64,000 nt of DNA from Lewinella sp. W8 (GTDB lineage Bacteria; Bacteroidota; Bacteroidia; Chitinophagales; Saprospiraceae). Under the pieces are notes generated by a model, which saw only the letters and a list, made by a program, of their open reading frames with translations, did not search any database and was not told where the DNA came from. The stretch spans positions 62,001 through 126,000 of the forward strand of contig NZ_SNAQ03000019.1 of the NCBI RefSeq assembly GCF_004375085.3. Direction: 5' to 3'. Both the position numbers and the translations under genes were made by a program. Positions 6,612-23,593 of this stretch are shown here, piece after piece; positions within the stretch are counted from its first letter, which is position 1; the number at the start of each line of letters is the position of its first letter.

Positions 6612-6899
6612 TTATTCTTTCATGTCTTCAAAATAGAAGACGATTTCATCTTCTGAGCACTCTTCCGGATCGGCCTGAATCGTCCCCGTTTCTAGGGGGT
6701 GGGAGTAGGTGATTTGATACCAGCCGGAATTTGTGCGGGTCGGGGTGAATGTTTTTTGGTTGTCCATCCCGGCCCTTCGGATTTTTACTTTTTCGTGGTC
6801 ATGGGAGACGGCGACTTGTCCTTTCATCAGGTCGGAACCTTTCACCATCAGGTTTCTACGCCAGGGCTTCTTCCGCTCGACAATTGTTAGCCGGATCAT
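6612..6899 (-). CDS. Hypothetical phage protein
   Basis: A 95-residue protein starting MIRLTIVERKKPWRR. The chosen ATG overlaps the stop of the upstream metallopeptidase gene (ATGA), the usual coupling here. A longer frame to 7034 lies inside that gene. The product is basic at the start and acidic at the end (CSEDEIVFYFEDMKE). Function unknown. Confidence 0.6.
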   Translation of the reverse strand: MIRLTIVERKKPWRRNLMVKGSDLMKGQVAVSHDHEKVKIRRAGMDNQKTFTPTRTNSGWYQITYSHPLETGTIQADPEECSEDEIVFYFEDMKE

Positions 6900-7396
6900 T
6901 GACCTGGAGAATGTAGGAGGCGAAGCATTTCGTCCGCGAAGAGGTTTGCCTCCGGCTCGGTTTGTTCTCGGTAGTTCTCTTGGCTTTGGATAGGCTTGCC
7001 GCAATGAAATAGAACGTGTCCGACTTCGTGCCAAAAAGTGCGCTCCGCCCCTTCGTCAGATAGTGGTCGACACATGGTTATGACTCCAATATTTGACCAG
7101 CCCCAAAGCTCCCTTCCTGAAACATGGCAAGTAGTGTCTTGCCATTGAAGTTTCACTCCCAATTGCTTGGCAACGGCCATGTAACCGCCATACCCGCTTT
7201 CGCAATCAAAGGACAGACGGCCGTAGAGATTCGCCCGGTATTCTGCCTCCTTGATGATCTGAGCGGACCGGGTATAAACTTCGTCTCCGTCATAGACTGA
7301 TTCCGCATAGCCGTCCGGGTACACCCCTCCCCCATCAGGGGAGAAGGCATAGAAACCGAAGGTGGCCAGCAGGAGGACCAATGCAAAAGTTTTCAT
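6896..7396 (-). CDS. Exported ImmA/IrrE-like zinc metallopeptidase
   Basis: This 166-residue protein has an N-terminal signal peptide (MKTFALVLLLATFGFYAFS). A zincin core follows: HEVGH at residues 123-127 and a downstream EANLFADEML helix supplying the third metal ligand (Glu149). That layout is the ImmA/IrrE (COG2856) pattern, whose usual members are cytoplasmic and cleave repressors. This one appears to work outside the inner membrane. Four cysteines (about 74, 90, 109 and 132) fit disulfides in the periplasm. A paralogue lies at 21149-21589. A structured, pseudoknot-forming region lies 15 nt upstream of the ATG. Confidence 0.75.
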   Translation of the reverse strand: MKTFALVLLLATFGFYAFSPDGGGVYPDGYAESVYDGDEVYTRSAQIIKEAEYRANLYGRLSFDCESGYGGYMAVAKQLGVKLQWQDTTCHVSGRELWGWSNIGVITMCRPLSDEGAERTFWHEVGHVLFHCGKPIQSQENYREQTEPEANLFADEMLRLLHSPGQ

Positions 7397-8523: not shown

Positions 8524-8555
8524 CAAATCTAATCCAAAAAGAAATAAATTCCAAA
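8524..8555 (-). promoter_or_regulatory. Leftward promoter with operator-like -33 region
   Basis: On the minus strand: TTTG (8555-8552), a 20-base spacer, then TAGATTTG (8531-8524), matching the Bacteroidota TTTG/TAnnTTTG pattern. The TTTG is inside AATTTTTGGAATT, the motif shared with three other promoters of this element; AATTCTG lies just upstream. It should drive the 8489-to-2721 block. Confidence 0.7.
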
Positions 8556-8573
8556 AATTTCAGAATTAAAAAA

Positions 8574-8599
8574 CCTCCAGAATTGTAAAATTCCAGAGG
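8574..8599 (-). terminator. Rho-independent terminator of recombination block
   Basis: Minus-strand stem of 11 pairs (CCTCTGGAATT with AATTCTGGAGG, two G-T pairs) and a 4-base loop, followed by six T (8573-8568). It lies 31 nt beyond the stop at 8630 and separates the recombination block from the next promoter. Confidence 0.7.
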
Positions 8600-8629
8600 C
8601 TCAGTTCAAAAGCAATCAAATAAAGTTCT

Positions 8630-9253
8630 TTAGCCGATGTCCTGGACTTGGCTTTCGTGGTGGTATTCGTTCTTGATGGCGGAGCGGACCCCGGCCATGG
8701 TGTTGACCGTCTGCTTGTAAGCGGTGAACGCTGCTTGAAGCTCCCGTCTCAGCCGGATAATATCGGTTAGGTAGTCGTACTCTTCCTTACACTCCTCCTT
8801 CGCCTTTAAGTCTGCGGCCTTTGCGGACTCATTGTTCTGCCGGTAGTATTGCTGAAGGCGGGCCTCTTTGGTTTCTCTCCGGTATCGGGCGTTCCGCTCT
8901 TCAGTCTCCAGCCTTGCGACCTGGACGCCGAAGGCTTTCAGCCCTCGGGCCATTCTTGCGTTAGCCTTCATCAGCTTGGGGAAGTCCTCGATTGGGCTGC
9001 CGCGTTCCACAAACTCCGCAAACCAGCAGTCAAGTTTCGCCATTTCCTCTTCCGCGTTTTCCAGGTCGAAGGCGGAAAGGGGAACGCATGGATGGATTGT
9101 GTACCCAGGCTCCGCGTCTTCGTGCTCAAAAACCTCGTAGGGGAAGCAGCAGGGGAAAGAAATGTCTACGGCATGATCCGGAACCGGCTCTCCGATTTCT
9201 ACCAGCCAATCAGCCAAACCCGAAGGGGAGGCAATCATCTTGTATTGGATCAC
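8630..9253 (-). CDS. Hypothetical coiled-coil protein of recombination block
   Basis: A 207-residue protein. The N-terminal part has cysteines and an acidic DLENAEEEMAKLDCWFAEF segment. The C-terminal half is long and helical (EERNARYRRETKEARLQQYY and onward), probably coiled coil. It overlaps the exonuclease gene by 4 nt and is last in the RecT/exonuclease operon. It may assist recombination or replication, judged only from position. Confidence 0.6.
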   Translation of the reverse strand: MIQYKMIASPSGLADWLVEIGEPVPDHAVDISFPCCFPYEVFEHEDAEPGYTIHPCVPLSAFDLENAEEEMAKLDCWFAEFVERGSPIEDFPKLMKANARMARGLKAFGVQVARLETEERNARYRRETKEARLQQYYRQNNESAKAADLKAKEECKEEYDYLTDIIRLRRELQAAFTAYKQTVNTMAGVRSAIKNEYHHESQVQDIG

Positions 9254-10152
9254 AGCATTATCATTTTTGCGACTTCCTCCTCCACGTTCATAAGCACAGG
9301 CGAAAGTTGTTGGTTAAGGTATTCCCGGGTGCGTTCTACCTGAAGATGTACGTCTTCAATCAATTCCCTGTCCAGGTCAAAGGTCCACGTCCGGATTCTC
9401 AGGGCCATGGGCAGATGTGAGAAGGTGTACCGCTTCTTAATCTTGGTCCAAATCTCTTCGTCCACGGAAACGCCTTTCATCCGGGCATACTTCCGGGCCT
9501 CGAATTCGATTATTTCGTCTGGAGCGTCGACTAGGCAGTACGCAAGCCCCAATTTCTCTCGGCCGTACAGATCGCCGTAGCCGTTGAGTTGGTACATATA
9601 GTCCTTGTTGAACTCTTCGTCAGAGAAAAGGGGAAAGGTGAATTCGTCGTAAGGGGTTTTAACATCCCAAACCCATGTCTTTGGGAGTAGGACGTCACAG
9701 GTGCCCCGCTTGTAATCATCCACCCGCTCCGGCCCTTGGTACTTGTCGAGGAAAGGGTCGTTAAGGTAGGACCGAAGCAGGTCGATTGATTGGTCTTCGC
9801 TGATTGTCCCGCGGATGGTGTGCTTGGTGCTAAACTCTTTCCGATTGCCGTAAATCTGGCTCTTTCCCCAGGTCTGTGCAATGGTCTTCGTAGTCGCTCC
9901 AATTTCTACCGGCGCGTTGGCTTTCTCCAGTAGGGCGGCGTGGTCCTTCTTGAGTTTGTCCGTGTATTTGCCGAGGCTACCGCCTGGAGTCCGGAAAACT
10001 CCCGCCTTACGCTGCTCTAGCTCTTCGAGCGTTTCCTTTTCCTTCTCGGTCAGAGCTTCGCGGCGGAAGGCAGACATAAAGGAACCGATTGACGAACAAC
10101 GGATTTTGAAGTCGTTTGGACTGATTGCCGGGGTGATGATCTTCTTTGTCAT
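9250..10152 (-). CDS. YqaJ-type phage exonuclease
   Basis: This 300-residue protein is a PD-(D/E)XK nuclease. Acidic and lysine residues appear in RGTCDVLLPKTWVWDVKT (D, then D-x-K), followed by YMYQLNGYGDLYG, the Tyr-x-x-Gln motif typical of the YqaJ/lambda exonuclease group. A conserved basic N-terminal helix is also present. It should resect double-stranded DNA 5' to 3', giving single strands for the RecT protein encoded directly upstream (TAATG overlap). Together they form a two-component recombination system used in phage replication or repair. Confidence 0.85.
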   Translation of the reverse strand: MTKKIITPAISPNDFKIRCSSIGSFMSAFRREALTEKEKETLEELEQRKAGVFRTPGGSLGKYTDKLKKDHAALLEKANAPVEIGATTKTIAQTWGKSQIYGNRKEFSTKHTIRGTISEDQSIDLLRSYLNDPFLDKYQGPERVDDYKRGTCDVLLPKTWVWDVKTPYDEFTFPLFSDEEFNKDYMYQLNGYGDLYGREKLGLAYCLVDAPDEIIEFEARKYARMKGVSVDEEIWTKIKKRYTFSHLPMALRIRTWTFDLDRELIEDVHLQVERTREYLNQQLSPVLMNVEEEVAKMIML

Positions 10153-11063
10153 TACTCAGCAGTTTCCGGTTGCGCTGTCTGCTCCAGGTCTTTGCGGAGA
10201 TTGTACTCAACCGCTTCCTTGTCGATCAACTTCATCTGTTCCTTCGTGACGTCGAAAAATTCTTTGACTCGGTCCCATGTGTGGCCGGCAGCAATGCCCC
10301 GGACGCATTTATTCCACTCTTCTGAGCCCTGGATGATTTTTGAGGGCTCAGGTGGTGCCTCAGTTGCTTGGGCGGCAAGCTCCATGTCTTTATTTTGGTC
10401 GTGGAACTTGTTGTCGAAGGAAATTGCCCGGGCGAGAAGGCTATCGTTAGCCCCCCAGGAGGTCCGCTTAATCATCCGTTTGAACGCCGTCTTGCGACGG
10501 AATTCATCAGGGTAGATTTTAGCCGCGGGGGAAGTAGACGAAGCGAGAATCCTGTCGCTCTCCTCCTTGGTGATAAGCTCCGCAATGCAATTCCCGTCGG
10601 GAAGGTGTCCAATGGAGTAGACACCAACGACTTTCCCCCGGGAGAATCCCTTCACTTCATGGGTGATCGGCTTCTTTGGGTTGCCTAAGTCCGCGTGGAA
10701 AACATCGGCAGCGTAGACTACCTGAGAATTGGAGGACGTGATCGCCCCTTCTTTTATCGCCAGGAAGTTAAGCCCCCGGGAAGTTACTTGAAGAACGGCC
10801 TTGGTCGTTCCGCTCCCTTTGAACCAACGGGCCTCCAGGTATGCGTACTGGTGTGCCGGGTTCAGCGTCAGGCCCAAAGAAACAACGTCCAAGACGGCGT
10901 TGCCAATGCTTTCGCGGGTAGCTTGTCCGATCTTCGGGTTCTCTTGAATAAGGCGGAGGGCGAAGTTTGCCTCCTTTTCTACGTCCTTCAGGTTCAGGCC
11001 CATTACCTTGATCCTGCCCTTTACCGGGTCGACGACTCTTAGACTGTTGTTTTGATTGCTCAT
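10152..11063 (-). CDS. recT: RecT family single-strand annealing protein
   Basis: This 303-residue protein matches RecT: IGNAVLDVVSLGLTLNPAHQYAYLE, a VLQVTSRGLNFLAIKEG segment, and the late FRRKTAFKRMIKRTSWGA helix. It binds single-stranded DNA and anneals complementary strands. Its start follows the small Zn-protein gene by 7 nt, and its stop overlaps the exonuclease start. The C-terminal 80 residues are charged and variable, as usual for protein-interaction tails. Confidence 0.9.
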   Translation of the reverse strand: MSNQNNSLRVVDPVKGRIKVMGLNLKDVEKEANFALRLIQENPKIGQATRESIGNAVLDVVSLGLTLNPAHQYAYLEARWFKGSGTTKAVLQVTSRGLNFLAIKEGAITSSNSQVVYAADVFHADLGNPKKPITHEVKGFSRGKVVGVYSIGHLPDGNCIAELITKEESDRILASSTSPAAKIYPDEFRRKTAFKRMIKRTSWGANDSLLARAISFDNKFHDQNKDMELAAQATEAPPEPSKIIQGSEEWNKCVRGIAAGHTWDRVKEFFDVTKEQMKLIDKEAVEYNLRKDLEQTAQPETAE

Positions 11064-11070
11064 TTCGGGT

Positions 11071-11352
11071 TTATTTGTTTTGATTGCTTACTATTTTTTT
11101 TACGATTCTTTGGGCGTCACTTGTGCGGATTTCAGGCATGACCGTAGCGAAGAAAATCTTCAGCCCTGTTTCGCTTTTGTAGTGGTTTTGGGTACCTACT
11201 CGCATCAATCCCCGCCCCGCCCTTGCTAGGCGCATCCGGTAGTTGTGATCGTAGATTCTACGGTTAAATTCATCGAAACAGCGGTCGCACATATCGACGC
11301 ACTCTTCACGAATCGTATTTACCGGGCCGCTGCACTCAGTACATTTATCCAT
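11071..11352 (-). CDS. Small zinc-binding protein
   Basis: A 93-residue protein starting MDKCTECSGPV. CTEC and MCDRC (two CxxC pairs about 17 residues apart) form a probable zinc ribbon, followed by a basic helix (RMRLARAGRGLMRVG). The start at 11352 gives the complete ribbon and overlaps the upstream gene by 8 nt. Probably binds nucleic acid or protein in the recombination block. Confidence 0.65.
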   Translation of the reverse strand: MDKCTECSGPVNTIREECVDMCDRCFDEFNRRIYDHNYRMRLARAGRGLMRVGTQNHYKSETGLKIFFATVMPEIRTSDAQRIVKKIVSNQNK

Positions 11353-11722
11353 TGTCTTCAGCCTTTTCGGGTTCTTTGAGGTTCGGGATTCCGAAGCCGC
11401 CGTCAACAACTTCGATTGCGTCCTCTTCTACGCCGTAGACGTGATAATCCCAATTGCTCAGGTCGTCGTTTTTCAGGATTCGGAAAAGCCTTTGGACGGT
11501 CATTGGCTGTCCCTTAAAATCGTTTGCGATTTTATCACGCTCCAATAGAAATGCGTCGGGGTTCGGGTAGTAGTTCATCCCAACTCCAGGAAGGAGCCGG
11601 AAGAGCCATGCGTCATTGACGTCCGGACAGATGAAGAGACGGGAGTATTCCCGGTACTGCTCAGGGAATTTTTCCTTTGCGAAGTCGGTGACTTCAGTTG
11701 ATCTTGCGAATTCGAATTTCAT
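11345..11722 (-). CDS. Hypothetical phage protein
   Basis: A 125-residue acidic protein with aromatic clusters (DAWLFRLLPGVGMNYYPNPDAF). No family recognised. It starts 18 nt after a strong terminator hairpin, so its expression probably depends on read-through. Confidence 0.55.
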   Translation of the reverse strand: MKFEFARSTEVTDFAKEKFPEQYREYSRLFICPDVNDAWLFRLLPGVGMNYYPNPDAFLLERDKIANDFKGQPMTVQRLFRILKNDDLSNWDYHVYGVEEDAIEVVDGGFGIPNLKEPEKAEDNG

Positions 11723-11739
11723 TTGATTGCTTGAAAAAC

Positions 11740-11767
11740 CCCGGGAGCCTTTGGTCGGGCTCCCGGG
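11740..11767 (-). terminator. Terminator or attenuator inside recombination block
   Basis: A perfect 9-bp stem, CCCGGGAGC with GCTCCCGGG, and a 10-base loop, followed on the minus strand by GTTTTTC (11738-11734). It sits between the first gene (11792-12079) and the second gene (11345-11722) of the block, so it would reduce read-through into recT. Confidence 0.75.
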
Positions 11768-11791
11768 AGGCTCGATGTGCGGCCTATGGTG

Positions 11792-12079
11792 TTAAGAAAA
11801 AGTGTTGTTGATAGCACCGGCTACGGCGTCCAGCGCGAGGCTTTCGACCTCCCGGCTCTTTTTGATCGCGTCCTTTGCGGACGGATCATTTACGGTTTCG
11901 AGGGATTCGGTCAGGTCGTTAACGGTTCCGAAGAACTGGAGCGGCTGTTTTGCGGCGTCCATGATCTTTGTCCCTCCTTGGTTGAGGTAGGAGCACGAAA
12001 CGTCTCCTTTCTTGATTCCGACGACCAGACGCTTCCCGGTAAAGGTGGTTCGTCTGGTGACGGGGGTAATTCTTTCCAT
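11792..12079 (-). CDS. Hypothetical protein heading recombination block
   Basis: A 95-residue protein with a basic N-terminus (MERITPVTRRTTFTGKRLVVGIKKGDVSCSYL) and an alanine-rich helical end. The only gene between the operator-type promoter at 12106-12137 and the hairpin at 11740-11767, it should be made at a higher level than downstream genes. No family recognised. Confidence 0.6.
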   Translation of the reverse strand: MERITPVTRRTTFTGKRLVVGIKKGDVSCSYLNQGGTKIMDAAKQPLQFFGTVNDLTESLETVNDPSAKDAIKKSREVESLALDAVAGAINNTFS

Positions 12080-12105
12080 TGCTAAGGAAGTTTTTGATTG
12101 CAGGA

Positions 12106-12137
12106 CAAAAATAGCTTTGCCAAATCAAAATTCCAAA
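12106..12137 (-). promoter_or_regulatory. Leftward promoter with operator-like -33 region
   Basis: Minus strand: TTTG (12137-12134), a 20-base spacer, then TATTTTTG (12113-12106). The TTTG lies inside TTCTGGAATTTTTGGAATT, nearly the same as at 8547-8567. It drives the recombination block. Confidence 0.75.
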
Positions 12138-12169
12138 AATTCCAGAATTTATTTCTTTCCAAATAAAAA

Positions 12170-12196
12170 GCCCCTGCCTCGATTTGAGACAGGGGC
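12170..12196 (-). terminator. Rho-independent terminator of membrane-protein block
   Basis: Minus-strand stem GCCCCTGTCTC with GAGGCAGGGGC (one mismatch), followed by TTTTTATTT (12169-12161). It is 20 nt past the stop of the 602-residue membrane protein gene. Confidence 0.75.
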
Positions 12197-12215
12197 CTTA
12201 GCAACTAACTGAGAA

Positions 12216-14024
12216 TTACTCTATGTGGAGCTTGTCGAAGGTGTAGGTCTTCACCTTGCCTTTTCGGTTCTTCGTGACTCTCCTTTTTCCGGGGCCCAGC
12301 TTAACGCTTATCCCTACGCGGCGGAGCGTTTTCGCCCTGCTTAAAAACTTCTTCCTTGCTGACGCCCTTCCCGTATCGGTAGCGTTTGTTTCGCTCCGCT
12401 CGTATGACCGCCGGCAAGCCTTCTTCAACTTCTCAAGGTCGTGGCTGGAGATTTCTTCTTCGTCACCCGAGGAGACGAGAAGATCACCGTCCAAATCAAA
12501 ATCCGTGTCTGTGTCCGTGTTTTGCTGAAAACCGCGTGGCACAACACTTTCAGGGGTTGCCGCTCTTCCAGAAACACGACTTTTTACCTCTTCCGTGTTT
12601 CGCGTTTCTTGCTCAGGCTTCGATTTCGTGTCCGTGTTTTTGGCGGTGCCGGAATTCGTGTTTGGCGTGTGTCCGGATCGTGTTTTCGTGTCTTTGCCGT
12701 TTCTGTACTTTCTGACGGAGTCGAAAAGGTAGATCATAGCCACGGCCAGGAAGCCAAAATTCCAGGGGTAGGGGAAAATGTCCCCGGCCTTCCGGAAGTT
12801 GTTTACCTCGGGGATAACAGTCTGAGTGATTCCAAACAGGAAGGCGGCAAAGGCAAAAGCGAGATTGACAGTCCGAAGCCGGGGGATAGACCAGGGCTTC
12901 GCCTCTCCACGGTCTGCGACCTTCGCCCGGGTCGCTTCAGCCCCTTGGACCAAATGCTCCAGCTTGTCATGAAAAATCCCGCCAATGTTGCCCAGGAGCT
13001 TCCCGAGTAGGGCTTCGTCATTCCAGGCGATGCCTTCGTACTCGCGCCCGCTCATCCATTTGTAGAACTCCCTGAGAAAGATTCCAAACACAATAAGCCA
13101 CACCGCGAAGTTGGTGCCGCCGGTCCAATCCTGGACCCGCTTTTCCGTTGCGGCTTTCGCTTCTGCTTCTTCCTGGTCAAATTTGTTCTCCCGCTTTTGG
13201 GCATTGCCGTTGTACGACGCTCGGGCCTCAGACAATTCCCGGGCCGCTTCGCTCTCGACCTTCGCAAGCTCGACCTTCATTGCCGCCTCAACAGTCCGGA
13301 TTTTAGCCCGCATCTCTTGTTCTAAAATGTCAGCCTTCAACCTCCGGGCCTTCGCATCGCCCGGGGCCCAGGGGTGGACCTTTGAATCCAGGTCCGCGTT
13401 TCTGTCTGCGGTCTTTCGCTCCTTCTCGATTCGGGGCGTGTAAATGCTTGCGATACTGTCCGCCTTGCCTCCGAAGGAAAGCTCAATCGCCTTTGACGAT
13501 GCCGCGTGAACCTTACGGATGTTCAGGGTATCCGCCTGGAAGTCTTCCTTCAGATCGGAAAGGTCTACCTCTTCCGGTGCATCGTGCATAGCCAAGGCCT
13601 GAGCCTCCGCGCCTCCTGCGCTTGTCTTACGGCTCAACAGGGTAATTCCTACCAGCATGGCGGCTAAGAAGACGAACAGGACCGCCCGGGGAAAGCTCCG
13701 AAACGTCTTCTTGTACATGAAGGCCAGCCAAAAAGTAATTGGGGGAATTACGTGGTGCATCAGTTCAATAACAGAGGAAATGGTAAGGGCTATAACCCCC
13801 CCAAAGATCATTGCAATTTCCTCGCCAAAGTAGGCAACGATCCCCCACGTTTCGCTTTTGTCATTCGCCCAAGCCAGTCCCCAATTGCAGCCCGTCAGGA
13901 AACTAACGACGTGGGCTAATCCGATGAAGAAGTTTAGCCACTTGACTGTCCGGCCGAACAGGATTTCGTTTTCAATCTGCTCTACCGTCCGGTTTTCTTC
14001 TTGTGTTAGTGTGTTGTCCTCCAT
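12216..14024 (-). CDS. Large membrane and coiled-coil protein, unknown function
   Basis: A 602-residue protein. It has about four hydrophobic segments before residue 140, then a long charged coiled coil (about 170-300, rich in AEAKAATEKR-type heptads) and further membrane segments near 310, 390 and 425. A low-complexity Ser/Thr/Asp linker and a strongly basic tail (SVKLGPGKRRVTKNRKGKVK) follow. I recognise no family. The membrane-plus-basic-tail layout could tether DNA or ribosomes to the membrane, but that is only a suggestion. It is downstream of a second membrane gene behind the leftward promoter at 14432-14464. Confidence 0.65.
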   Translation of the reverse strand: MEDNTLTQEENRTVEQIENEILFGRTVKWLNFFIGLAHVVSFLTGCNWGLAWANDKSETWGIVAYFGEEIAMIFGGVIALTISSVIELMHHVIPPITFWLAFMYKKTFRSFPRAVLFVFLAAMLVGITLLSRKTSAGGAEAQALAMHDAPEEVDLSDLKEDFQADTLNIRKVHAASSKAIELSFGGKADSIASIYTPRIEKERKTADRNADLDSKVHPWAPGDAKARRLKADILEQEMRAKIRTVEAAMKVELAKVESEAARELSEARASYNGNAQKRENKFDQEEAEAKAATEKRVQDWTGGTNFAVWLIVFGIFLREFYKWMSGREYEGIAWNDEALLGKLLGNIGGIFHDKLEHLVQGAEATRAKVADRGEAKPWSIPRLRTVNLAFAFAAFLFGITQTVIPEVNNFRKAGDIFPYPWNFGFLAVAMIYLFDSVRKYRNGKDTKTRSGHTPNTNSGTAKNTDTKSKPEQETRNTEEVKSRVSGRAATPESVVPRGFQQNTDTDTDFDLDGDLLVSSGDEEEISSHDLEKLKKACRRSYERSETNATDTGRASARKKFLSRAKTLRRVGISVKLGPGKRRVTKNRKGKVKTYTFDKLHIE

Positions 14025-14026
14025 GA

Positions 14027-14398
14027 TTATTGATTTACAGTAAGATTGTGTCTTCCGGCGTTTTCGGTCTTCCGACGAATGTTCGCCCGGAGCCGTTCGA
14101 CTCTCTCAGGCGTCACCAGTTCAAAGTCTACATCGATGGTTTCCCCCAGTACTTCGTGATTGACCAGGATAGGCTCAGGGTTTTCTTCACAGGCATAGGG
14201 AGCCGGGGGAAGCTCTTCGTCGTCTTCCCATACAGGCATATTTTCCGGATTGTCAACCGGCTCGAATGGATCAAAAATATTGGTGTACCGCCACAGGAAC
14301 TCCCGGATTCCTCGCTCGATCCCGGGAATGAGGAACAACCTCACGAATTGGATCAAGAGGTAAGAAATGAAGCAGCAGCAAAGGAAAAACAGAATCAT
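14027..14398 (-). CDS. Single-pass membrane protein
   Basis: A 123-residue protein with one N-terminal membrane helix (ILFFLCCCFISYLLIQFVRLFLI, four cysteines/phenylalanines) and an acidic cytoplasmic or periplasmic tail. It ends 2 nt before the large membrane protein gene, so the two are probably co-translated and may form a complex. First gene of the leftward membrane block. Confidence 0.6.
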   Translation of the reverse strand: MILFFLCCCFISYLLIQFVRLFLIPGIERGIREFLWRYTNIFDPFEPVDNPENMPVWEDDEELPPAPYACEENPEPILVNHEVLGETIDVDFELVTPERVERLRANIRRKTENAGRHNLTVNQ

Positions 14399-14431
14399 AC
14401 CGCACTAAAAAGGCGGCTCACACATCGGATG

Positions 14432-14464
14432 CAAAAATAATTAAAACGTAGTGTTTATTCCAAA
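14432..14464 (-). promoter_or_regulatory. Leftward promoter of membrane block with operator
   Basis: Minus strand: TTTG (14464-14461), a 21-base spacer, then TATTTTTG (14439-14432). The TTTG is embedded in TGGAATTTTTGGAAT (operator-like core near 14458-14480). A divergent -7-like TATTTTTG (14483-14490, + strand) for the 14508 gene lies just beyond, so one operator can serve both directions. Confidence 0.7.
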
Positions 14465-14507
14465 AATTCCAATTTGGAAACATATTTTTGCAGTAAAATG
14501 TGATTTC

Positions 14508-15248
14508 ATGGCTTTGGATTTTACGCGCTACGACGAATATGACACCCAGCAAGTGACGATTTGGATTTATCACTTCGTCGAAAAATTGAAGAAAGATTTT
14601 GAGGCTCAAAAACGCTCTTTCAAACTGGAGCCCGAGACTCAGCGAGTGGCCGATAAGGTTTCACTAAGCAACAAATGGGCCATGAAACGTGGCTTTCTAG
14701 TTGGCCGAAAGATCATCCAGAAAAAAGAACTCAAAATAGGAGATTCCTTTGTCCGCGGAATAGATTTTGCTAAGACCGCGCATTTCTACTTAACCCAGCC
14801 GGGGCAATGGAAGAATATAGAAGAGTATCTAAGATCGATTGATGATAAGTTTTCAGAATTAGTAGAATTATCCAAAACCGAGAAAGAGAATAACAACTCC
14901 GTGCTTTTTCAAGCACAAAAAAAACTGGAGACCGCCTCCAGACAAGACGCAAATGCTATTCTAAGGGCCGTCCAGGAAGTTCAATCCATGGTGTTACCCT
15001 TAGTTGAAGAAAACCATTCCCTCAGAGAACAAAACACTACACAGCAAATGACAATTCTCCGATTAACTAAAGACGTGACGCGAAGAGTCGATCAAAACGA
15101 AAAACTGAAAGCCTCCGTTTCACGATTCAAGAAGTCCATGGATAAGCTCCTGGAGAGAATCGGCAAAGAAAAAGACCAAAGTAAAATTGAAGAAATGCGA
15201 AAAAAATACAACAAAATGTTGGAAGAGTTTGAAAAGTTGATGGAATGA
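14508..15248 (+). CDS. Coiled-coil protein at the divergent control region, candidate regulator
   Basis: A 246-residue protein. The N-terminal 110 residues are mixed (WIYHFVEKLKKDF, KLEPETQRVADKVSLSNKW) with no motif I can name. The rest is a long, Glu/Lys/Gln-rich coiled coil (residues about 125-246). I chose ATG 14508 (MALDFTRYDEY), just downstream of a TATTTTTG -7 element. Its position between divergent operator-bearing promoters is where phage repressors usually sit, but I cannot see a clear helix-turn-helix. It may be the regulator or a structural protein. Confidence 0.6.
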   Translation: MALDFTRYDEYDTQQVTIWIYHFVEKLKKDFEAQKRSFKLEPETQRVADKVSLSNKWAMKRGFLVGRKIIQKKELKIGDSFVRGIDFAKTAHFYLTQPGQWKNIEEYLRSIDDKFSELVELSKTEKENNNSVLFQAQKKLETASRQDANAILRAVQEVQSMVLPLVEENHSLREQNTTQQMTILRLTKDVTRRVDQNEKLKASVSRFKKSMDKLLERIGKEKDQSKIEEMRKKYNKMLEEFEKLME

Positions 15249-15322
15249 TTTGAGGAATAAATTTTGCCGTGCTAACTTTACACAGCAATAATCTCAGTCA
15301 TCCGATTCTAAACGTACCCTAA

Positions 15323-15472
15323 ATGCTTGCTCAAGATAGCTTTAACTACACGCCTCCCGAAACCAATGAAAATCAGGAAGTAGACGTTCAAACATCCAAA
15401 AAGGAAGATGAAATCTCCGCCAAACTTGATCTTATGTCCGACGACATAGACAAGTTCCTGGACGAGCTTTAG
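15323..15472 (+). CDS. Small acidic 49-aa protein
   Basis: An ATG at 15323 opens a 49-residue frame ending KLDLMSDDIDKFLDEL, an acidic amphipathic helix with regular hydrophobic spacing. The composition is strongly coding-like. It follows the coiled-coil gene by 74 nt. It could be a partner or inhibitor peptide. Function unknown. Confidence 0.5.
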   Translation: MLAQDSFNYTPPETNENQEVDVQTSKKEDEISAKLDLMSDDIDKFLDEL

Positions 15473-15503
15473 GCTGTAACTCAAGAACAGAAAATAGAAT
15501 TTA

Positions 15504-15520
15504 TTCCAAAAATTTTGGAA
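15504..15520. promoter_or_regulatory. Palindromic operator-like site
   Basis: The near-palindrome TTCCAAAAATTTTGGAA lies on top of the -33 TTTG of the small-RNA promoter. It shares the TTTTGGAAT core with the sites at 8547-8567, 12129-12149 and 14458-14480. Confidence 0.6.
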
Positions 15521-15544
15521 TTATAAAATACTTGCTTAGTTTTG
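15514..15544 (+). promoter_or_regulatory. Rightward promoter of small RNA and replication block
   Basis: TTTG (15514-15517), a 19-base spacer, then TAGTTTTG (15537-15544), a full match to the Bacteroidota promoter. Transcription should begin near 15550. Confidence 0.75.
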
Positions 15545-15546
15545 CT

Positions 15547-15707
15547 AACGCACAGCAAAGGGTGGTTCCTTTGACGACGGTGCGTTAAGTACGAACTAGG
15601 CCCGCCGAAAGGCGGAGCGCAACGAAAACCATTGCTGGGGTATGCCCTAGCACAAACGCGCCGTCAATTGGAAAGGGGCCGCTCTCGTTTTACGAGGCGG
15701 TCTTTTT
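15547..15707 (+). ncRNA. Candidate structured small RNA with own promoter and terminator
   Basis: About 160 nt runs from a consensus promoter to a terminator. Helices: AACGCA (15547-15552) with TGCGTT (15581-15586), enclosing AAAGG/CCTTT; CCGCC-GAAA-GGCGG (15602-15615), a 5-bp stem capped by a GNRA tetraloop; TTGCTGGGG-type hairpin (15632-15655; TGCT/AGCA and GGG/CCC around TATG); then the terminator stem. No coding frame. It could act as an antisense regulator of the replication arm, a protein-binding decoy, or a leader with an attenuator. It matches no RNA family I can name. Confidence 0.6.
15679..15707 (+). terminator. Rho-independent terminator of small RNA
   Basis: Eight stem pairs (CCGC and CTCG with CGAG and GCGG, one bulged T), a 5-base T-rich loop, and a TCTTTTTC tail. 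It lies 80 nt upstream of the first replication-block gene, so part of that transcription may need read-through or a second promoter. Confidence 0.75.
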
Positions 15708-15786
15708 CATTTTACCCCAATGCTGCCGGTCGATTTTGACCAAATGACTGATCCTGCCACGCGGCGGGCTGGAAAAGCTATGTCTT

Positions 15787-16147: not shown

Positions 16148-16407
16148 ATCGGATGCTCCGCCAAATGGACGCGGCAAAAGATTTGATCCAATTGGACATT
16201 GCCTTTGGGAATCTTGAGACCGCACTTCAGGCCGCGAAGATTAAAGGGCTTGAGGAAATAGCAAACGCCGTCATTGCCAAAGATTTGGTCTCCTCCAGAG
16301 AGGGACGGGATATGATAATGACGCTACCGATAGACGACCCCATGGGGGTAGTAGACAGAATGAAACAAAGCGTGAAGACTTATGAAAATGAATTGGCCGA
16401 CCTATGA
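16102..16407 (+). CDS. Hypothetical helical protein of replication block
   Basis: A 101-residue protein with a basic first dozen residues (MAKGKASGKNVVRLVDRM) and long helices. The start lies inside the previous gene, unusual but compatible with the ATGA-coupled layout here; an internal start could be used. It overlaps the initiator gene by 4 nt. Role unknown. Confidence 0.55.
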   Translation: MAKGKASGKNVVRLVDRMLRQMDAAKDLIQLDIAFGNLETALQAAKIKGLEEIANAVIAKDLVSSREGRDMIMTLPIDDPMGVVDRMKQSVKTYENELADL

Positions 16408-17270
16408 GTAAGATTGTCAGAAAAAAAAGGGACAAGCCCTTCGTTATGATCGGTAGGGACGCTTCTCAAGACGTGGAACTGTCTTGGAAGGCCCGGGGAA
16501 TTCTCCAATATCTTCTTGGCCTACCCGACGGTTGGGAAATCAACATGGAAGACCTTGTCAAGCGGTCGAAGAAAGACGGAAAGGCGTCGCTACGGTCTGG
16601 AATCCATGAACTGATTATCGCCGGTTATATGACCCGGAAACTGAAGCGGAAAGACCAGGGCGGGCAACTGGCTGGATATGACTACGAAGTCGACGACGTT
16701 CCCGTACCTCCTGAGAAAAGATCAACGGACACCATTGTCCGAAAATCGAATAACGGTTCCACCGTTGTGCGGTTTTCCGATAACGGGAAAACCGATAACG
16801 GGAAACCGAACACTAATAAAGAAACAGAGAAAGAAGAGAAACATAGTAATAAAGAAGAGAGAGGAACGCGCTCTATTTCTGATGTTCCTAGGGGTGATTA
16901 TGACAATGAAATTTCATTGGAGGATGAAGTCTTCTCGAACTGCGTGGAGGAAATCCGTAAACAGCCAAGACTACCTCAAATCATTTGCACCCGGGCGCGG
17001 CTTGAACTGACAAAGAAAGAATTCTACCACGAAATGAAGAAATGGATCAATCACAGAATCCAGGATCATGCTTTCGTGGAAAAAGCACATACCCGTCTAC
17101 TCAGTGGCCGGGGCTCCTTCTTTTCGTGGGTGAATACTGACAAGACCCGGACGAAGTACGCTGCTCTTCGTGAACAAGGCGAAGTCAAAGAAGGCGTCCT
17201 CCAGGGAGAAAGCCCGCTGGCAAAACATCGCCAACTGATTGAGGAAATGAAAAAAGAAGACGCCCTATGA
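16404..17270 (+). CDS. Phage replication initiator (winged-helix)
   Basis: A 288-residue protein. The first 95 residues contain a winged-helix domain of the phage replisome-organiser type: LSWKARGILQYLLGLPDGWEINMEDLVKRSKKDGKASLRSGIHELIIAGYM, in which helix, helix and recognition helix are clear. A low-complexity Asn/Lys/Glu linker and a C-terminal helical domain follow. It likely binds the element's origin and recruits the DnaB helicase encoded next (ATGA overlap). The origin itself is not identified. Confidence 0.75.
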   Translation: MSKIVRKKRDKPFVMIGRDASQDVELSWKARGILQYLLGLPDGWEINMEDLVKRSKKDGKASLRSGIHELIIAGYMTRKLKRKDQGGQLAGYDYEVDDVPVPPEKRSTDTIVRKSNNGSTVVRFSDNGKTDNGKPNTNKETEKEEKHSNKEERGTRSISDVPRGDYDNEISLEDEVFSNCVEEIRKQPRLPQIICTRARLELTKKEFYHEMKKWINHRIQDHAFVEKAHTRLLSGRGSFFSWVNTDKTRTKYAALREQGEVKEGVLQGESPLAKHRQLIEEMKKEDAL

Positions 17271-18832
17271 CCAAAGCAATAGAAAGTCCGCTCCTGAAGG
17301 AGCTTACAGGTCTCGATAGTCTCAAGCCGTCAGCCGTCAGCATTGAAAAGCAACTAATTTCAGCTTGTCTTTTCTTTCAAGATGGATTCCCGAAAGCCAT
17401 TGATCTAGTTAAGGCCGATCACTTTTTCGACCCGCGAAACCGGTTGATCTTCGAGGCAATGACCAGTATTTTCAATTCCCAAAGGGAGGTTGAGCTTTAC
17501 TTGGTTGCTGAAGAAATGACGAAGCGGGGAACGCTCCAGGAAGCCGGCGGGATGCCCTACTTCCAGGAACTCCGGGGAAGAGTCTCTTCTTCCTTCTACG
17601 TTGAGGATCATTCTTTGGTGGTTGCTGAGAAGTATATCGCCCGCACAGGCATCGAGGTAGCGAACAACTTCTCCGACGCTCTTCTCCGCAACGAAGACGT
17701 TTTCGAGCAAATCGACGGACTGGAAAACTGGATTGGGGGCGTGAACGGAATTGGTCCGGACTCAAAACCTGAGCTTGCCGGTGACATTGGGGATCGGTAC
17801 TTACAAAAGTTGGAGGAGTTTGCCGCGGATGAAAATGCGGAGGCCCCGGGCCTGAGTAGCGGTTACAAATCGCTTGACCGCGTTACCACCGGATTTCATC
17901 CTGGCGATCTCATTCTGGTCGCTGCCCGCCCTGCAATGGGTAAAACCGCTTTCGCAATGGGCCTCGGGCGCAACGTTGCCCGGAGGAAAGACAAAGGCGT
18001 CCTCATTTTCAACCTGGAAATGTCAAAGGATCAATGCCATGGCCGCAATCTGAGTGCTGAGTCCGGAGTCCCTGGAAACCGCTTGCGGGATTGGTCAAGG
18101 CTCAGAAAAGACAAAGTTGCTCGGGATTTAATGCACGAAGCGAACGCGAAGATCAAAACCTGGAGTCTTTTCATTGACGACACCCCGGGAATCACATTGT
18201 CCAAGGTCCGAGCAAAAGCCCGGGAAACGGCGCGGAAAATGGCAAAGAAAGGGACTCCGCTTTCCATGATAATCATTGATTATCTGCAATTGATGGGGAC
18301 CAACGCCAAAAAGGGACAGAACAGGGAGCAGGAAGTCGCAGGAATCAGCCGTGGGCTCAAGGCTCTTGCCAAAGAACTGGAAGTCCCGGTCATTGCCCTT
18401 TCCCAGCTATCTCGGGCGGTTGAGGCCAGGGGAGGGGATAAGCGGCCTCAACTGTCGGACTTGAGAGAGTCGGGATCGCAGGAACAGGACGCCGACATGG
18501 TGATGTTCCTCTACCGCCCGGAATACTACAAAATCACCGAAGACGAACAGGGCAATTCGCTCCTTGGAATGGCTGAAGTAATTGTCGGGAAGAACCGGCA
18601 CGGCGGAGCCCGAGACGTCATTCTCCAGTTCAAAAGCGAAACAGGGGTTTTCGAAGAACTTGACAATCCAGACTTTTCGCTAACGGGCAATCACCCGTCG
18701 GCCCCGAAGACGCCCGCTGCTGCTGACTATAACGATACAGATTCATGGCTTGAGGACTTGCCCTATGGCAGTTCCCAGCACTTTCCTGAAGGGAGTCCCG
18801 TAGACCTGGACGAAAACATCCCCTTCGATTAA
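17267..18832 (+). CDS. dnaB: Replicative DNA helicase DnaB
   Basis: This 521-residue protein has the DnaB N-terminal domain (SIEKQLISACLFF, DHFFDPRNRLIFEAM). A RecA-like ATPase follows: Walker A ARPAMGKT near residue 223 and Walker B MIIIDYLQLM near 340, with the SQLSRAVEARGGDKRPQLSDLRESGSQEQDAD signature. It unwinds DNA at the fork. It is longer than typical DnaB because of an acidic tail. It starts within the stop of the initiator gene, as is normal for phage initiator-helicase pairs. Confidence 0.93.
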   Translation: MTKAIESPLLKELTGLDSLKPSAVSIEKQLISACLFFQDGFPKAIDLVKADHFFDPRNRLIFEAMTSIFNSQREVELYLVAEEMTKRGTLQEAGGMPYFQELRGRVSSSFYVEDHSLVVAEKYIARTGIEVANNFSDALLRNEDVFEQIDGLENWIGGVNGIGPDSKPELAGDIGDRYLQKLEEFAADENAEAPGLSSGYKSLDRVTTGFHPGDLILVAARPAMGKTAFAMGLGRNVARRKDKGVLIFNLEMSKDQCHGRNLSAESGVPGNRLRDWSRLRKDKVARDLMHEANAKIKTWSLFIDDTPGITLSKVRAKARETARKMAKKGTPLSMIIIDYLQLMGTNAKKGQNREQEVAGISRGLKALAKELEVPVIALSQLSRAVEARGGDKRPQLSDLRESGSQEQDADMVMFLYRPEYYKITEDEQGNSLLGMAEVIVGKNRHGGARDVILQFKSETGVFEELDNPDFSLTGNHPSAPKTPAAADYNDTDSWLEDLPYGSSQHFPEGSPVDLDENIPFD

Positions 18833-20955: not shown

Positions 20956-21152
20956 TGTGGAGAGCCTTAGAACGAAACCCCAAGCTCGGGCCCATCCTGG
21001 CCATCTTGTTTACGGTCGCTGGCGACTTGGCCGCAACCGCACTCAACGGGCCCAGCCTGATGCGTCAAGCAATTACCGTAACCATGATGATCCTACACGG
21101 TGCCGTGTTTACTTGGTGCTGGATGAGGGAGAGTAAAGTTGTTGAGAAATGA
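20952..21152 (+). CDS. Small two-TM membrane protein
   Basis: A 66-residue protein beginning MMWRALERNPKLG, two membrane segments (PILAILFTVAGDLAATAL, AITVTMMILHGAVFTWCW). I selected the ATG overlapping the previous stop. Together with the previous gene it forms a coupled membrane pair. Confidence 0.5.
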   Translation: MMWRALERNPKLGPILAILFTVAGDLAATALNGPSLMRQAITVTMMILHGAVFTWCWMRESKVVEK

Positions 21153-21589
21153 GGGAGACGCTAAAATACCTGATCCTGATTGCCCCGACCCTACTTATGG
21201 GCATGGCCTACTATCAAATCAATAAGCCCACGCCACCGACTAGAGGTGCAGAACTGCAAAAGGCGGTCATTGAGACGGCTGAACTGTTCCGGTCAACCGA
21301 TATGAGTTATGACGGCATGGCCCAGGCACTTGGGGTAAAGGTCGTTTACAAAGATGTATTGCAAAATGCACTGGGCCAAACCGATTGCAATGCTACAATA
21401 TGGATGAAAAACGGATTGAATGTGCCTACAAAAAGGTTTGTGTTTTACCACGAGGTAGGCCACATCGTATTAAACCATTGCCCGGATTGGCCCAGCAACG
21501 AGGAAACAGCACAGACCGAGGCAGACTATTTCGGTAAATACTTGGCTGAGGAGTTGGGGCAGTCAATCAATTTTTACACACAACGATGA
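21149..21589 (+). CDS. Membrane-anchored ImmA/IrrE-like zinc metallopeptidase
   Basis: A 146-residue protein with an N-terminal membrane or signal segment (LKYLILIAPTLLMGMAYY). The zincin motif is HEVGHIVLNHC (His101, Glu102, His105), with a downstream EADYFGKYLAE helix giving the third ligand (Glu124). It is a relative of 6896-7396; both place the protease domain outside the cytoplasm and share the H-E-V-G-H core. It overlaps its neighbours at both ends. The substrate is unknown. Confidence 0.7.
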   Translation: MRETLKYLILIAPTLLMGMAYYQINKPTPPTRGAELQKAVIETAELFRSTDMSYDGMAQALGVKVVYKDVLQNALGQTDCNATIWMKNGLNVPTKRFVFYHEVGHIVLNHCPDWPSNEETAQTEADYFGKYLAEELGQSINFYTQR

Positions 21590-21838: not shown

Positions 21839-21997
21839 ATGAGTGCCACGATCAAAGAAATTCTTTCCGAACCCAATGCCCTGGATAACCTGATTTTGGA
21901 TTATCTTTTCGACAGGGCGGAGGAGCAAGTCCTTTACCAAGAGGACGAGCCCAAAACCAAGCCGGACAAAGAAAAAGACACAGACAATCCCGAGTAG
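21839..21997 (+). CDS. Small acidic 52-aa protein
   Basis: An ATG at 21839 gives a 52-residue peptide (MSATIKEILSEPNALDNLIL ... KDTDNPE), a helix followed by an acidic low-complexity tail. The stop and the recombinase GTG share one base (TAGTG), indicating coupling to the recombinase. It could be a recombination directionality factor, which are typically small and encoded beside the integrase, but they are usually basic, so this is weak. Confidence 0.5.
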   Translation: MSATIKEILSEPNALDNLILDYLFDRAEEQVLYQEDEPKTKPDKEKDTDNPE

Positions 21998-23529
21998 TGA
22001 AAATCACCGACCATATTTATTTTGCCGTTGGTTCCCGCGTAAGCACCAAGAAGCAGGACGCCGGAATATCCATTGAGTCCCAAGACAAGGGAGTCGAAGG
22101 GCATATCCTGAAGAGCAACCCGAAGGCGCAAATCCTTTTCAATTTCGCAGCAGCGGAAAGCGGATGGAAGGCGAACCGGGCCAACATTCAAAAAGCGTAC
22201 GACGAGCTCAGGAGACACAATCAGAGCAACCCCTCGAAGGCGGTGACGTGCTTTGTGTTCCTGCAAGCGGACCGCTACATCCGTAACCTCCTCAACGGTG
22301 CTTCCTGGATAGAGAAATTCCAGCAAATAGGGGTTTACATCAACATTGTGGAACGTTGGGTCGATTGGGACGATACAATGTCCGTTTCCATGTTCATGCT
22401 TGACCTCGCCCGGGCGGAGGAGTATTCAAAGAAGAACTCTCAGAACATCAAACGGTGCTACACCCAACGGGTAGAAGTAGGCATCCTTCCCGTCCCCAAG
22501 CTCCCCCGGATTTACGTTCGGGAATGGATCACCAGGACGCCAAAGAACTACCGCATCCTGAAGGGCCCCGCTTGGGAGCCGTTCGTCAAGTTCAAAGACT
22601 ACGTCCTTGCCGGGATCAACATGAAAGCAGCTTGGCGACGTGCCGGCGGCAAAGAAGCACTCGGGAGCTACGACTCAGCAATCCAACTGATTGAAAACCC
22701 AATGGCCTGGGGAATGTACCGGGGCTACCCCTTCGACGCTCCGGCCCCCATGACTCCGGAGGAGGGGAGGAAGATTGCCCGAATGAGGTCAGCAAAGCAA
22801 GCCAAGACAGCCAAAAGCAGAAAGAAGCAAGACGCTTTCATGGCCCCGGTATGCGCCTGTCCGCATTGCTCCTCCAGGCTTACCCTATCCGTTCCCAACG
22901 AGAACACCCGCCGCAAGCCGAAGAAGTATTTGATCTGTGGCAAGTTCACTCCGCGGCACTACCGGATAGACGCCGATAAGCTCAACAAGGACGCCCTTGA
23001 GTTGATCCAACAGCTAACATTGTCCGGAAGAGCCTCGCAGCGGCTCGGGAAGAAAGCAGAGGAGCGGAGCCGGATTCTCCGGGCCAATACTGAAATAGAG
23101 GTGAAAAACCTTCGGGCGGAAGCTAAGAAGGCCAACGAAGCCCGCCAGAACATTGCTTGGTTGCTGGCGACGGGTGCCGTCTCCGTCGAGGACCGGGACG
23201 CCGTTATCGCCCGGTGCGACGAAATCAGCGACAGATTGGCCGACGCGGAAGCACGGCTCAAAAATCACGGCAAGATACTGGAGTCCGTTCTTCAAGGCCT
23301 CAACAACCTGGGGGCGATCTTCCGGGAGGAGCCCCGCAGGGATATGCTCACCGATTTTCTGCTTATGGCCTTCCCCGACGGCTTGATTTACGACCAAAAA
23401 TTAGGTATCTTTCGAACAACTACACTTAACTCGGCATTGACCGTAACTACCGATCTATCAAGCAGTTGCACCAAACTAAAAACCCGGCTACCCACTATTA
23501 AAGCGAGTAACCGGGTAATGAGCGGATGA
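21997..23529 (+). CDS. Large serine recombinase (integrase)
   Basis: A 510-residue protein with GTG start. The resolvase domain opens with GSRVSTKKQD, where Ser16 is the catalytic nucleophile and Arg14 its partner, and DRYIRN corresponds to the later active-site arginines. A recombinase domain follows. Next comes a zinc ribbon (CPHC near 290, with later C and H), then a coiled coil near 350-430, as in large serine integrases. It should cut at att sites. The last codons lie in the tRNA-Gly 3' end, and the stop TGA is within tRNA sequence. The tRNA terminator also lies inside its 3' end. Confidence 0.9.
   Translation: MKITDHIYFAVGSRVSTKKQDAGISIESQDKGVEGHILKSNPKAQILFNFAAAESGWKANRANIQKAYDELRRHNQSNPSKAVTCFVFLQADRYIRNLLNGASWIEKFQQIGVYINIVERWVDWDDTMSVSMFMLDLARAEEYSKKNSQNIKRCYTQRVEVGILPVPKLPRIYVREWITRTPKNYRILKGPAWEPFVKFKDYVLAGINMKAAWRRAGGKEALGSYDSAIQLIENPMAWGMYRGYPFDAPAPMTPEEGRKIARMRSAKQAKTAKSRKKQDAFMAPVCACPHCSSRLTLSVPNENTRRKPKKYLICGKFTPRHYRIDADKLNKDALELIQQLTLSGRASQRLGKKAEERSRILRANTEIEVKNLRAEAKKANEARQNIAWLLATGAVSVEDRDAVIARCDEISDRLADAEARLKNHGKILESVLQGLNNLGAIFREEPRRDMLTDFLLMAFPDGLIYDQKLGIFRTTTLNSALTVTTDLSSSCTKLKTRLPTIKASNRVMSG
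23483..23515 (-). terminator. Terminator of tRNA-Gly inside the recombinase gene
   Basis: Minus-strand stem CCCGG-TTAC-type with GTAG-CCGGG (8 pairs, one bulge each side), then TTTTTAG (23482-23476). It lies just beyond the 3' end of the tRNA and antisense within the recombinase coding region. Confidence 0.65.
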
Positions 23530-23593
23530 CCAGGTTCGAACCGGCGACCTCAACCTTGGCAAGGTTGCGCTCTACCAACTGAGCTACATCCGC
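23521..23593 (-). tRNA. tRNA-Gly (anticodon GCC)
   Basis: The minus strand gives a canonical cloverleaf: acceptor GCGGATG/CATCCGC (7 bp), D-arm AGCTCAGTTGGTAGAGC, anticodon arm CAACC-TTGCCAA-GGTTG with GCC, T-arm with TTCGAAC, discriminator T, no encoded CCA. It is the insertion target of the element: its 3' end is shared with the recombinase stop codon. Confidence 0.95.

What the first reader, a model, noticed from the sequence alone, without database searches (positions are those of the whole stretch)
8524..15544. Shared operator motif over -33 boxes of four prophage promoters
At 8524-8555, 12106-12137, 14432-14464 and 15514-15544 there is a Bacteroidota promoter (TTTG, 19-21 base spacer, TAnnTTTG), and in each the -33 TTTG lies within an AATTTT(T)GGAAT motif. 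Two neighbours share AATTC(T)GGAATTTTTGGAATT almost exactly. This predicts one DNA-binding protein blocking all early blocks at once (recombination, membrane pair, small-gene operon, small RNA/replication). Most phages use a few operators at a single control region; this one is dispersed. The regulator is unknown; 14508-15248 is the positional candidate but has no visible helix-turn-helix.
Basis: partly seen in the sequence, partly recalled or inferred. Interest (0 to 1): 0.72.

Follow-up and report, generated by a model that had tools for sequence, protein, structure and literature searches.

The report
Prophage early promoters share one operator
A prophage in a Lewinella-group bacterium carries the same short DNA sign over the start sites of four early gene blocks, and related prophages carry a similar layout with a different sign around the same kind of unknown gene, which suggests that this gene makes a new type of phage master switch.

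Summary
The window has exactly four strict TTTG-N18-22-TAnnTTTG promoters, and all four carry a 21-bp pseudo-palindrome over the -33 box (consensus AATTCYRRAATTTTTGGAATT; perfect dyad ATTCCAAAA-A-TTTTGGAAT at 15503; site 3 poor). The motif is almost absent from the rest of the 6.18-Mb genome. The motif does not recur in the relatives found; the layout does. The 14508-15248 protein, with no known domain, has three homologues in the genomes searched, all in the same genus. In the G214 prophage four strict promoters share a different motif over -33, and a fifth (TTCG at -33) carries the same dyad. In Lewinella sp. JB7 two exact copies of a third motif lie on either side of the regulator, with off-consensus -7 boxes. 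This protein is the only one that BLASTP (1e-4) finds in all three elements. In all three, regulator, small ORF and operator-promoter follow in that order. Best reading: a temperate-phage master repressor of an undescribed family, acting at dispersed operators that occlude the -33 box, with operators that diverged together with it. Binding is not shown and structure prediction failed. Dispersed operators are known (P1, cluster A mycobacteriophages), so this is a new variant of a known kind.

The parts
8547..8567 (-). Operator site 1 (AATTCTGAAATTTTTGGAATT) over the -33 box of promoter 8555-8524, reading left into the small-gene operon that starts at 8489
12129..12149 (-). Operator site 2 (AATTCTGGAATTTTTGGAATT) over the -33 box of promoter 12137-12106, reading left into the block 12079 ... 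RecT-like 11063-10152, then 10152-9250
   Evidence: RecT match below the curated cut-offs
14456..14479 (.). Operator site 3 between the divergent genes 14398(-) and 14508(+): intact right half GGAATTTTTGGAAT plus small dyad TTCCA-ATT-TGGAA; covers the -33 of the leftward promoter 14464-14432 and the stretch upstream of the regulator's own -7 box
14483..14490 (+). Probable -7 box (TATTTTTG) of the regulator gene; no good -33 seen, so site 3 would lie at about -39 to -16 of it (inferred)
   Evidence: read by eye
15502..15522 (.). Operator site 4, perfect dyad ATTCCAAAA-A-TTTTGGAAT over the -33 box of promoter 15514-15544(+)
14508..15248 (+). Candidate regulator P0001, 246 aa: better conserved N-terminal part (about 130 aa, 31 percent against 26 percent overall) and a long predicted-helical C-terminal part; no known domain
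15323..15472 (+). Small ORF (49 aa) between regulator and site 4; ORFs of 53 and 43 aa lie at the same place in the two relatives, sequence similarity not convincing (shuffle fractions 0.17, 0.08, 0.016)
15549..15712 (+). Structured RNA ending in an intrinsic terminator, behind the site 4 promoter (start inferred); no Rfam family at gathering score
16404..18832 (+). Replication genes downstream of site 4: RepO-like 16404-17270, DnaB helicase 17267-18832
12216..14398 (-). Two genes behind the site 3 leftward promoter (14398-14027, 14024-12216); function not determined here

Best explanation
The four sites are operators of one prophage-encoded repressor, most likely the 14508-15248 protein. In the lysogen it would bind, as a dimer or higher oligomer, to the 21-bp pseudo-palindrome and cover the -33 TTTG that the host primary sigma factor needs, so that four near-consensus early promoters (small-gene operon, recombination block, two-gene block, RNA plus replication) stay off together. 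Site 3 also lies upstream of the regulator's own -7 box and would make it autoregulated. Loss of repressor activity would switch all early blocks on together. In related prophages the regulator and its operator sequence have diverged together, which would give each phage its own immunity specificity. Shown by computation: sites, phasing, near-confinement to the element, conserved regulator and layout, different motifs. Inferred: DNA binding by this protein, repression rather than activation, oligomeric state, autoregulation, the induction signal.
For: Four of four strict promoters in the window carry the motif over -33, and the motif is nearly confined to this element genome-wide. In the 126 kb of contig read, a matrix from three sites ranks the fourth 2nd (site 1), 2nd (site 2), 14th (site 3) and 7th (site 4; 4th on its other strand). 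In the G214 prophage four strict promoters share TTTGCA-N6-[AG]ACT (4 of 4, against 0 of the other 46 strict matches in that genome); each is ranked 4th to 6th in its 67.9-kb contig by a matrix from the other three, and a fifth promoter with TTCG at -33 carries the same dyad in the same phase (opposite strand 5th or 6th in most scans). In Lewinella sp. JB7 two exact copies of AATTATATCGTTTTATTTG lie on either side of the regulator and point outward; the next match in that genome has three mismatches. P0001 is the only protein that BLASTP at 1e-4 finds in all three elements, at 25 to 29 percent identity. The order regulator, small ORF, operator-promoter is the same in all three. The dyads cover the -33 box, as expected for occlusion.
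Against: P0001 has no recognisable DNA-binding domain in Pfam, PHROGs or NCBIfam, nor by profile against the PDB. Two AlphaFold runs were of low confidence (mean pLDDT 57 and 42). Site 3, nearest the regulator, is the worst dyad and falls to rank 14 when left out. In JB7 the -7 boxes at the two copies differ from the consensus by one and two bases, a 237-aa ORF lies between the left copy and the regulator, and the three promoter-like places of L135 found by the relaxed scan (3836, 9980, 15341) lack the motif. In G214 a sixth promoter (CTTG, L017 9830) looks related by eye but ranks only 14th. The fourth homologue (G244) has no recognisable operators. Two one-mismatch copies of the 12-mer lie elsewhere in the window. 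No binding or expression data exist here.
Confidence: 0.7

Rival explanations
1. The operators are real but are bound by another phage protein, for example one of the small winged-helix proteins at 20184 or 20378, while the 14508 protein does something else.
For: The 20184 and 20378 proteins have weak winged-helix matches, below the Pfam cut-offs, and the other two elements also carry small HTH proteins near their replication genes (L017 1976-2218, weak; L135 14725-15078).
Against: BLAST finds no homologues of them between the elements (two pairs compared directly). The two window genes lie at the far end of the gene block behind the site 4 promoter, so they would probably be off in the lysogen; that suits a Cro-like role more than a master repressor. 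In the three elements it is the P0001 gene that lies between copies of the motif.
Confidence: 0.15
2. The motif is an activator or sigma-appropriation site: a phage factor binds at -33 and recruits polymerase to a defined set of promoters, as MotA does at T4 middle promoters (recalled).
For: The motif sits where sigma region 4 would bind, and it coincides with all strict promoters of the window.
Against: The promoters already have consensus -33 and -7 boxes and spacing, which an activator-dependent promoter would not need; the sites are dyads; the regulator's own start also lies beside a site.
Confidence: 0.1
3. Copying: the early promoters are recent duplicates of one another, so the shared stretch is ancestry and not an operator.
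For: In G214 the similarity runs on through spacer and -7 box (GTGTAnnTTTG).
Against: In the window the spacers beyond GAAT are unlike each other (by eye), and what is kept is the dyad.
Confidence: 0.04
4. A host regulator such as the Bacteroidota LexA-like SOS repressor controls the prophage through these sites.
For: Bacteroidota have LexA-like repressors related to phage repressors, and in several phages host LexA takes part in control (PMC8565304, passages).
Against: [quoted passage not shown]
Confidence: 0.02

Closest known systems
Phage P1 C1 repressor with its 22 dispersed operators
   Same: One repressor, many copies of one short operator spread over the genome, controlling replication and other lytic genes at once (PMC8546580, passages seen).
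   Different: P1 operators are an asymmetric 17-mer and there are about five times as many. C1 and the 14508 protein were not compared directly; the 14508 protein matches no repressor family in the libraries searched.
Cluster A mycobacteriophage repressor and its operators/stoperators (L5, Bxb1, Trixie)
   Same: 20 to 30 dispersed sites with one consensus per phage; site consensus and repressor diverge together among related phages and bear on immune specificity (PMC6550527, passages seen).
   Different: Most of those sites are outside promoters and block elongation; here all four strong sites are at promoters. Those repressors have a helix-turn-helix.
phiC31 repressor and its conserved inverted repeats
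   Same: Palindromic operators scattered over the early region, at early promoters (recalled; the paper search listed nothing).
   Different: Actinobacterial phage, more sites, other repressor; the comparison rests on memory.
Bacteroidota LexA-like SOS repressors
   Same: Same phylum, phage-repressor-like origin, palindromic sites at promoters (PMC8565304, abstract and passages seen).
   Different: Different motifs; S24 peptidase domain and HTH, neither of which is found in the 14508 protein.

Membership tests
Phage immunity systems with dispersed operators (P1 C1, cluster A mycobacteriophages) | Several copies of one operator, spread over kilobases, at different transcription units of one phage | tested here: met
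   Four sites over 7 kb in the window; five over about 14 kb in G214 (four strict promoters, one TTCG); two copies 1.9 kb apart in JB7
Phage immunity systems with dispersed operators (P1 C1, cluster A mycobacteriophages) | Operator consensus differs between related phages in step with the repressor | tested here: met
   Three elements, three motifs, regulator identities 25 to 29 percent; only three cases, so a pattern and not a statistic
Phage immunity systems with dispersed operators (P1 C1, cluster A mycobacteriophages) | A phage-encoded repressor shown to bind the sites | not testable with these tools
   Needs gel shift, DAP-seq or reporter assays
Cluster A stoperator system | Most sites outside promoters, oriented with transcription, blocking elongation | tested here: not met
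   The four window sites are at promoters; in 126 kb of the contig the next best place scores 21.2 against 27.7 for the weakest of the four
CI/ImmR-type HTH repressors | Recognisable N-terminal HTH domain | tested here: not met
   No HTH match for P0001 in Pfam, PHROGs or NCBIfam; a divergent HTH is not excluded
Bacteroidota LexA-like SOS repressors | S24 peptidase domain and sites GGA-N5-TCC or CTAA-N5-TTAG | tested here: not met
   No S24 match for P0001; the operator dyad differs

The most novel reading that the evidence does not exclude
The 14508 family is a new family of temperate-phage master repressors, with no known DNA-binding fold and a long helical C-terminal part, that controls dispersed early promoters by sitting on the Bacteroidota -33 box and changes operator sequence together with its own sequence, giving new immunity groups; the RNA and the small ORF beside it may belong to the same switch.
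Probability: 0.5. Interest if true: 0.65.

Novelty: new variant of a known kind. Interest (0 to 1): 0.5.

Why it matters
To my knowledge lysogeny control in Bacteroidota phages is poorly known. Here a computed operator set, a candidate repressor without known domains and three naturally diverged regulator-motif pairs give a directly testable model: one gel shift per pair, with the other pairs as controls. If right, it adds a repressor family that domain searches miss, shows how a phage can silence a -33/-7 type promoter set, and offers a repressor-operator pair matched to Bacteroidota promoters.

Tried and rejected
Motif conserved in relatives: rejected. A scan of viral contigs for AATTTTTGGAAT-N14-18-TAnnTTTG gave 105 stretches; 104 of 105 have a single match in the DNA held (median GC of the set 0.34; one of them, L044, has a second copy of the 12-mer) and the only one with several (three) is the IMG/VR copy of this same prophage.

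Wider P0001 family (order, family and class tallies count G000 itself): order search 4 of 396 genomes, of which G365 was rejected (match inside a very long ORF that looks like a Clp ATPase by eye); family search 4 of 398, adding G244; class search 9 of 395, of which the 8 non-self rows match only from profile position 103 on and were rejected as similarity of helical C-terminal parts. Genome-contig scan with A1: 156 stretches, 1 relative, Lewinella sp. JB7. Viral contigs with P0001 and with A1: only the same prophage. Phage records: no match.

Structure: two AlphaFold runs gave mean pLDDT 57 and 42; no fold search was run on them. The PDB profile search listed 20 sequences up to E 1; the best (0.0005 to 0.1) are designed or natural coiled-coil or helical proteins matched on the C-terminal part, and the weaker rest are mixed.

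Small ORF as a conserved partner: pairwise shuffle fractions 0.17, 0.08 and 0.016, not convincing. Structured RNA: no Rfam match near a gathering score; best E 0.013 for the JB7 stretch, on the other strand. Attachment site: only one repeat of 13 bases or more was found between the tRNA-Gly region and the upstream contig (14 bases, 23618 and C10:51005), not at a plausible left end, so the prophage's left end was not fixed.

G214 count mended on checking: I had counted the CTTG promoter (L017 9830) as a full member. In one search its row was typed out of register and its apparent rank came from itself; it ranks 14th, so it is now called doubtful. The same check showed another place, C7:43514, scoring like the TTCG promoter: an AGTTGG/CCAACT dyad in a gap beside an ORF, followed 17 bases on by TAAATTTG on the minus strand; it may be a further operator, with its dyad nine bases further upstream than the others. 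JB7: a dyad TTAATAC-N9-GTATTAA lies upstream of the regulator and TTAATACAA recurs beside both motif copies; not followed further.
Full report
WHERE IT IS. The window is G000:C10:62001-126000 of a 6.18-Mb genome. One homologous protein comes from G192, a genome of the same genus; its contig has the length and gene of contig NZ_JANCTD010000008.1 of Lewinella sp. JB7, so I take G192 as JB7 and the host as one of the Lewinella group (Saprospiria). The region is a prophage: RecT-like protein 11063-10152 (below the curated cut-offs), RepO-like and DnaB proteins, a large serine-recombinase-like protein 21997-23529 overlapping a tRNA-Gly at 23520-23593. The same element is in IMG/VR as a 56.9-kb record.

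CHECK OF THE OBSERVATION. The strict Bacteroidota promoter pattern occurs exactly four times in the window, at the four stated places (0.59 expected, 1 of 100 shuffles reached four). All four carry ATTCCAAAAATT over the -33 box. In promoter orientation the sites are AATTCTGAAATTTTTGGAATT, AATTCTGGAATTTTTGGAATT, CAAATTGGAATTTTTGGAATA and TATTCCAAAAATTTTGGAATT: a 21-bp pseudo-palindrome, perfect in its inner 19 bases at site 4, poorest at site 3. Taking the -7 box as -12 to -5 (PMC9723704, passages seen), the dyad centres fall at about -37 to -39 (inferred).

SPECIFICITY. The exact 12-mer occurs 7 times in the genome: the four sites and three copies inside one interspersed repeat on C32 and C55. 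With one mismatch it also occurs at 5534 and 52923 of the window, away from these promoters. The 21-mer with up to three mismatches hits sites 1, 2 and 4 and one other place; the reversed control has one. Of 83 strict promoter matches in the genome, TTTGGAAT follows at 4 of 4 in the element and 2 of 79 elsewhere. The reversed control pattern has 48 matches, so the 79 are not all promoters. Leave-one-out scans of 126 kb rank the four sites 2nd, 2nd, 14th and 7th; the 14th is site 3, and site 4 is 4th on its other strand.

RELATIVES. The 14508-15248 protein (P0001, 246 aa) has no known domain. Homologues were found in three genomes of the same genus: G192 (JB7), G214 and, weaker, G244. Open reading frames of the prophage part of the window and of stretches around the G192 and G214 genes were compared by BLASTP at 1e-4: the P0001 family is the only one shared by all three; the recombinase and DnaB are shared by window and G214, two other proteins by window and G192, and others by G192 and G214.

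In G214 a different motif, TAAAGTTTGCAGGNGCNAACTATGGAGTGTA, covers -33 of four strict promoters. TTTGCA-N6-[AG]ACT occurs in 4 of 4 of these and in 0 of the other 46 strict matches of that genome (motif again chosen after seeing it; 50 strict matches against 10 for the reversed control). A matrix from three of them ranks the remaining one 4th to 6th in the 67.9-kb contig. A fifth promoter, with TTCG at -33 (L017 5950, minus strand), carries an AGTT-N10-AACT dyad in the same phase; it was found by the matrix scan. A CTTG promoter at L017 9830 looks similar by eye but ranks 14th. One more dyad at C7:43514 stands before TAAATTTG in another phase. The 28-bp pattern with up to three mismatches occurs three times in G214 and not in G000, G192 or G244.

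In JB7 two exact copies of AATTATATCGTTTTATTTG lie on either side of the regulator and point outward, the left one beyond a 237-aa ORF; the next match in that genome has three mismatches. Their TTTG is followed at 20 to 21 bases by TATCTTAG and TACCTTGC, one and two bases off the consensus -7, and the promoter-like places of L135 found by the relaxed scan lack the motif, so JB7 is the weakest of the three. In G244 the homologue stands near a contig end beside an ORF that looks like a transposase by eye, with no repeated site found.

LAYOUT. In the window, G214 and JB7 the regulator is followed by a small ORF of 43 to 53 aa and then by an operator-promoter leading towards replication genes (the JB7 replication protein is named by its 62 percent identity to that of G214 over 153 residues). 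The transcript from that promoter would soon meet a strong hairpin followed by a U-rich stretch in all three. In the window the 162-nt RNA folds far better than shuffles (z -7.04); JB7 z -3.45, G214 leader z -4.85. Whether the RNAs are related was not tested.

MECHANISM. The most economical reading is a repressor that occludes -33. The promoters are close to consensus and should fire unaided; the dyads cover the -33 box (centred near -38 in the window, near -30 in G214); the regulator gene has a site beside its own start. An activator or a phage sigma system would not need such promoters. That P0001 is the repressor rests on comparison: sole protein shared by the three elements, always between copies of the motif, and divergence of protein and motif together. 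That it binds DNA is not shown. The winged-helix proteins at 20184 and 20378 remain the main rivals.

COMPARISON. Dispersed operators are known: 22 C1 operators in P1 (PMC8546580, passages seen) and 20 to 30 repressor sites in cluster A mycobacteriophages, where site consensus and repressor diverge together (PMC6550527, passages seen). The Bacteroidota SOS repressors bind other motifs (PMC8565304, abstract and passages seen). Paper searches for Lewinella with prophage, for Bacteroidetes with phage repressor, operator and promoter terms, and for Bacteroides lysogeny with repressor and operator showed no title on such a system (listings only), which is a limited search. So the kind is known; the repressor family, the host phylum and the -33 geometry are what seems new.

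Noticed in passing
window 15549-15712: Very stable structured RNA with intrinsic terminator (z -7.04) directly behind the site 4 promoter; JB7 and G214 also have hairpin leaders at the same place. Possible regulatory or immunity RNA, or a readthrough control.
   Followed up: partly
window 21149-21589 (+) and 6896-7396 (-): Two ImmA/IrrE-like (M78) metallopeptidases in one prophage, the first above and the second just below the Pfam cut-off, each with an N-terminal hydrophobic stretch by eye; such peptidases inactivate repressors in other elements (recalled).
   Followed up: no
G000 C55 around 1730 and 4378, C32 around 2797 (L136, L137): A repeat of roughly 180 bases, nearly identical in three copies by eye, beside small genes and, on C55, an integrase-like ORF (L136 4717-5970); it looks like integron-type cassette sites. 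It carries the 12-mer.
   Followed up: no
window 8570-8605: Intrinsic-terminator-like hairpin on the minus strand whose arms hold GGAATT and AATTCTGG, resembling the operator beside it; a place overlapping it scored 18.1 in the matrix scan.
   Followed up: partly
window 23520-23593: tRNA-Gly (GCC) overlapping the end of the serine-recombinase gene, probably the right attachment site; a tRNA (L012 4875-4946) also lies near the replication side of the JB7 element.
   Followed up: partly
L139 13514-13531 (G214 C7:43514): Isolated AGTTGG/CCAACT dyad before an AGTGTAAATTTG stretch, about 24 kb from the other G214 operators; may be a further operator.
   Followed up: partly
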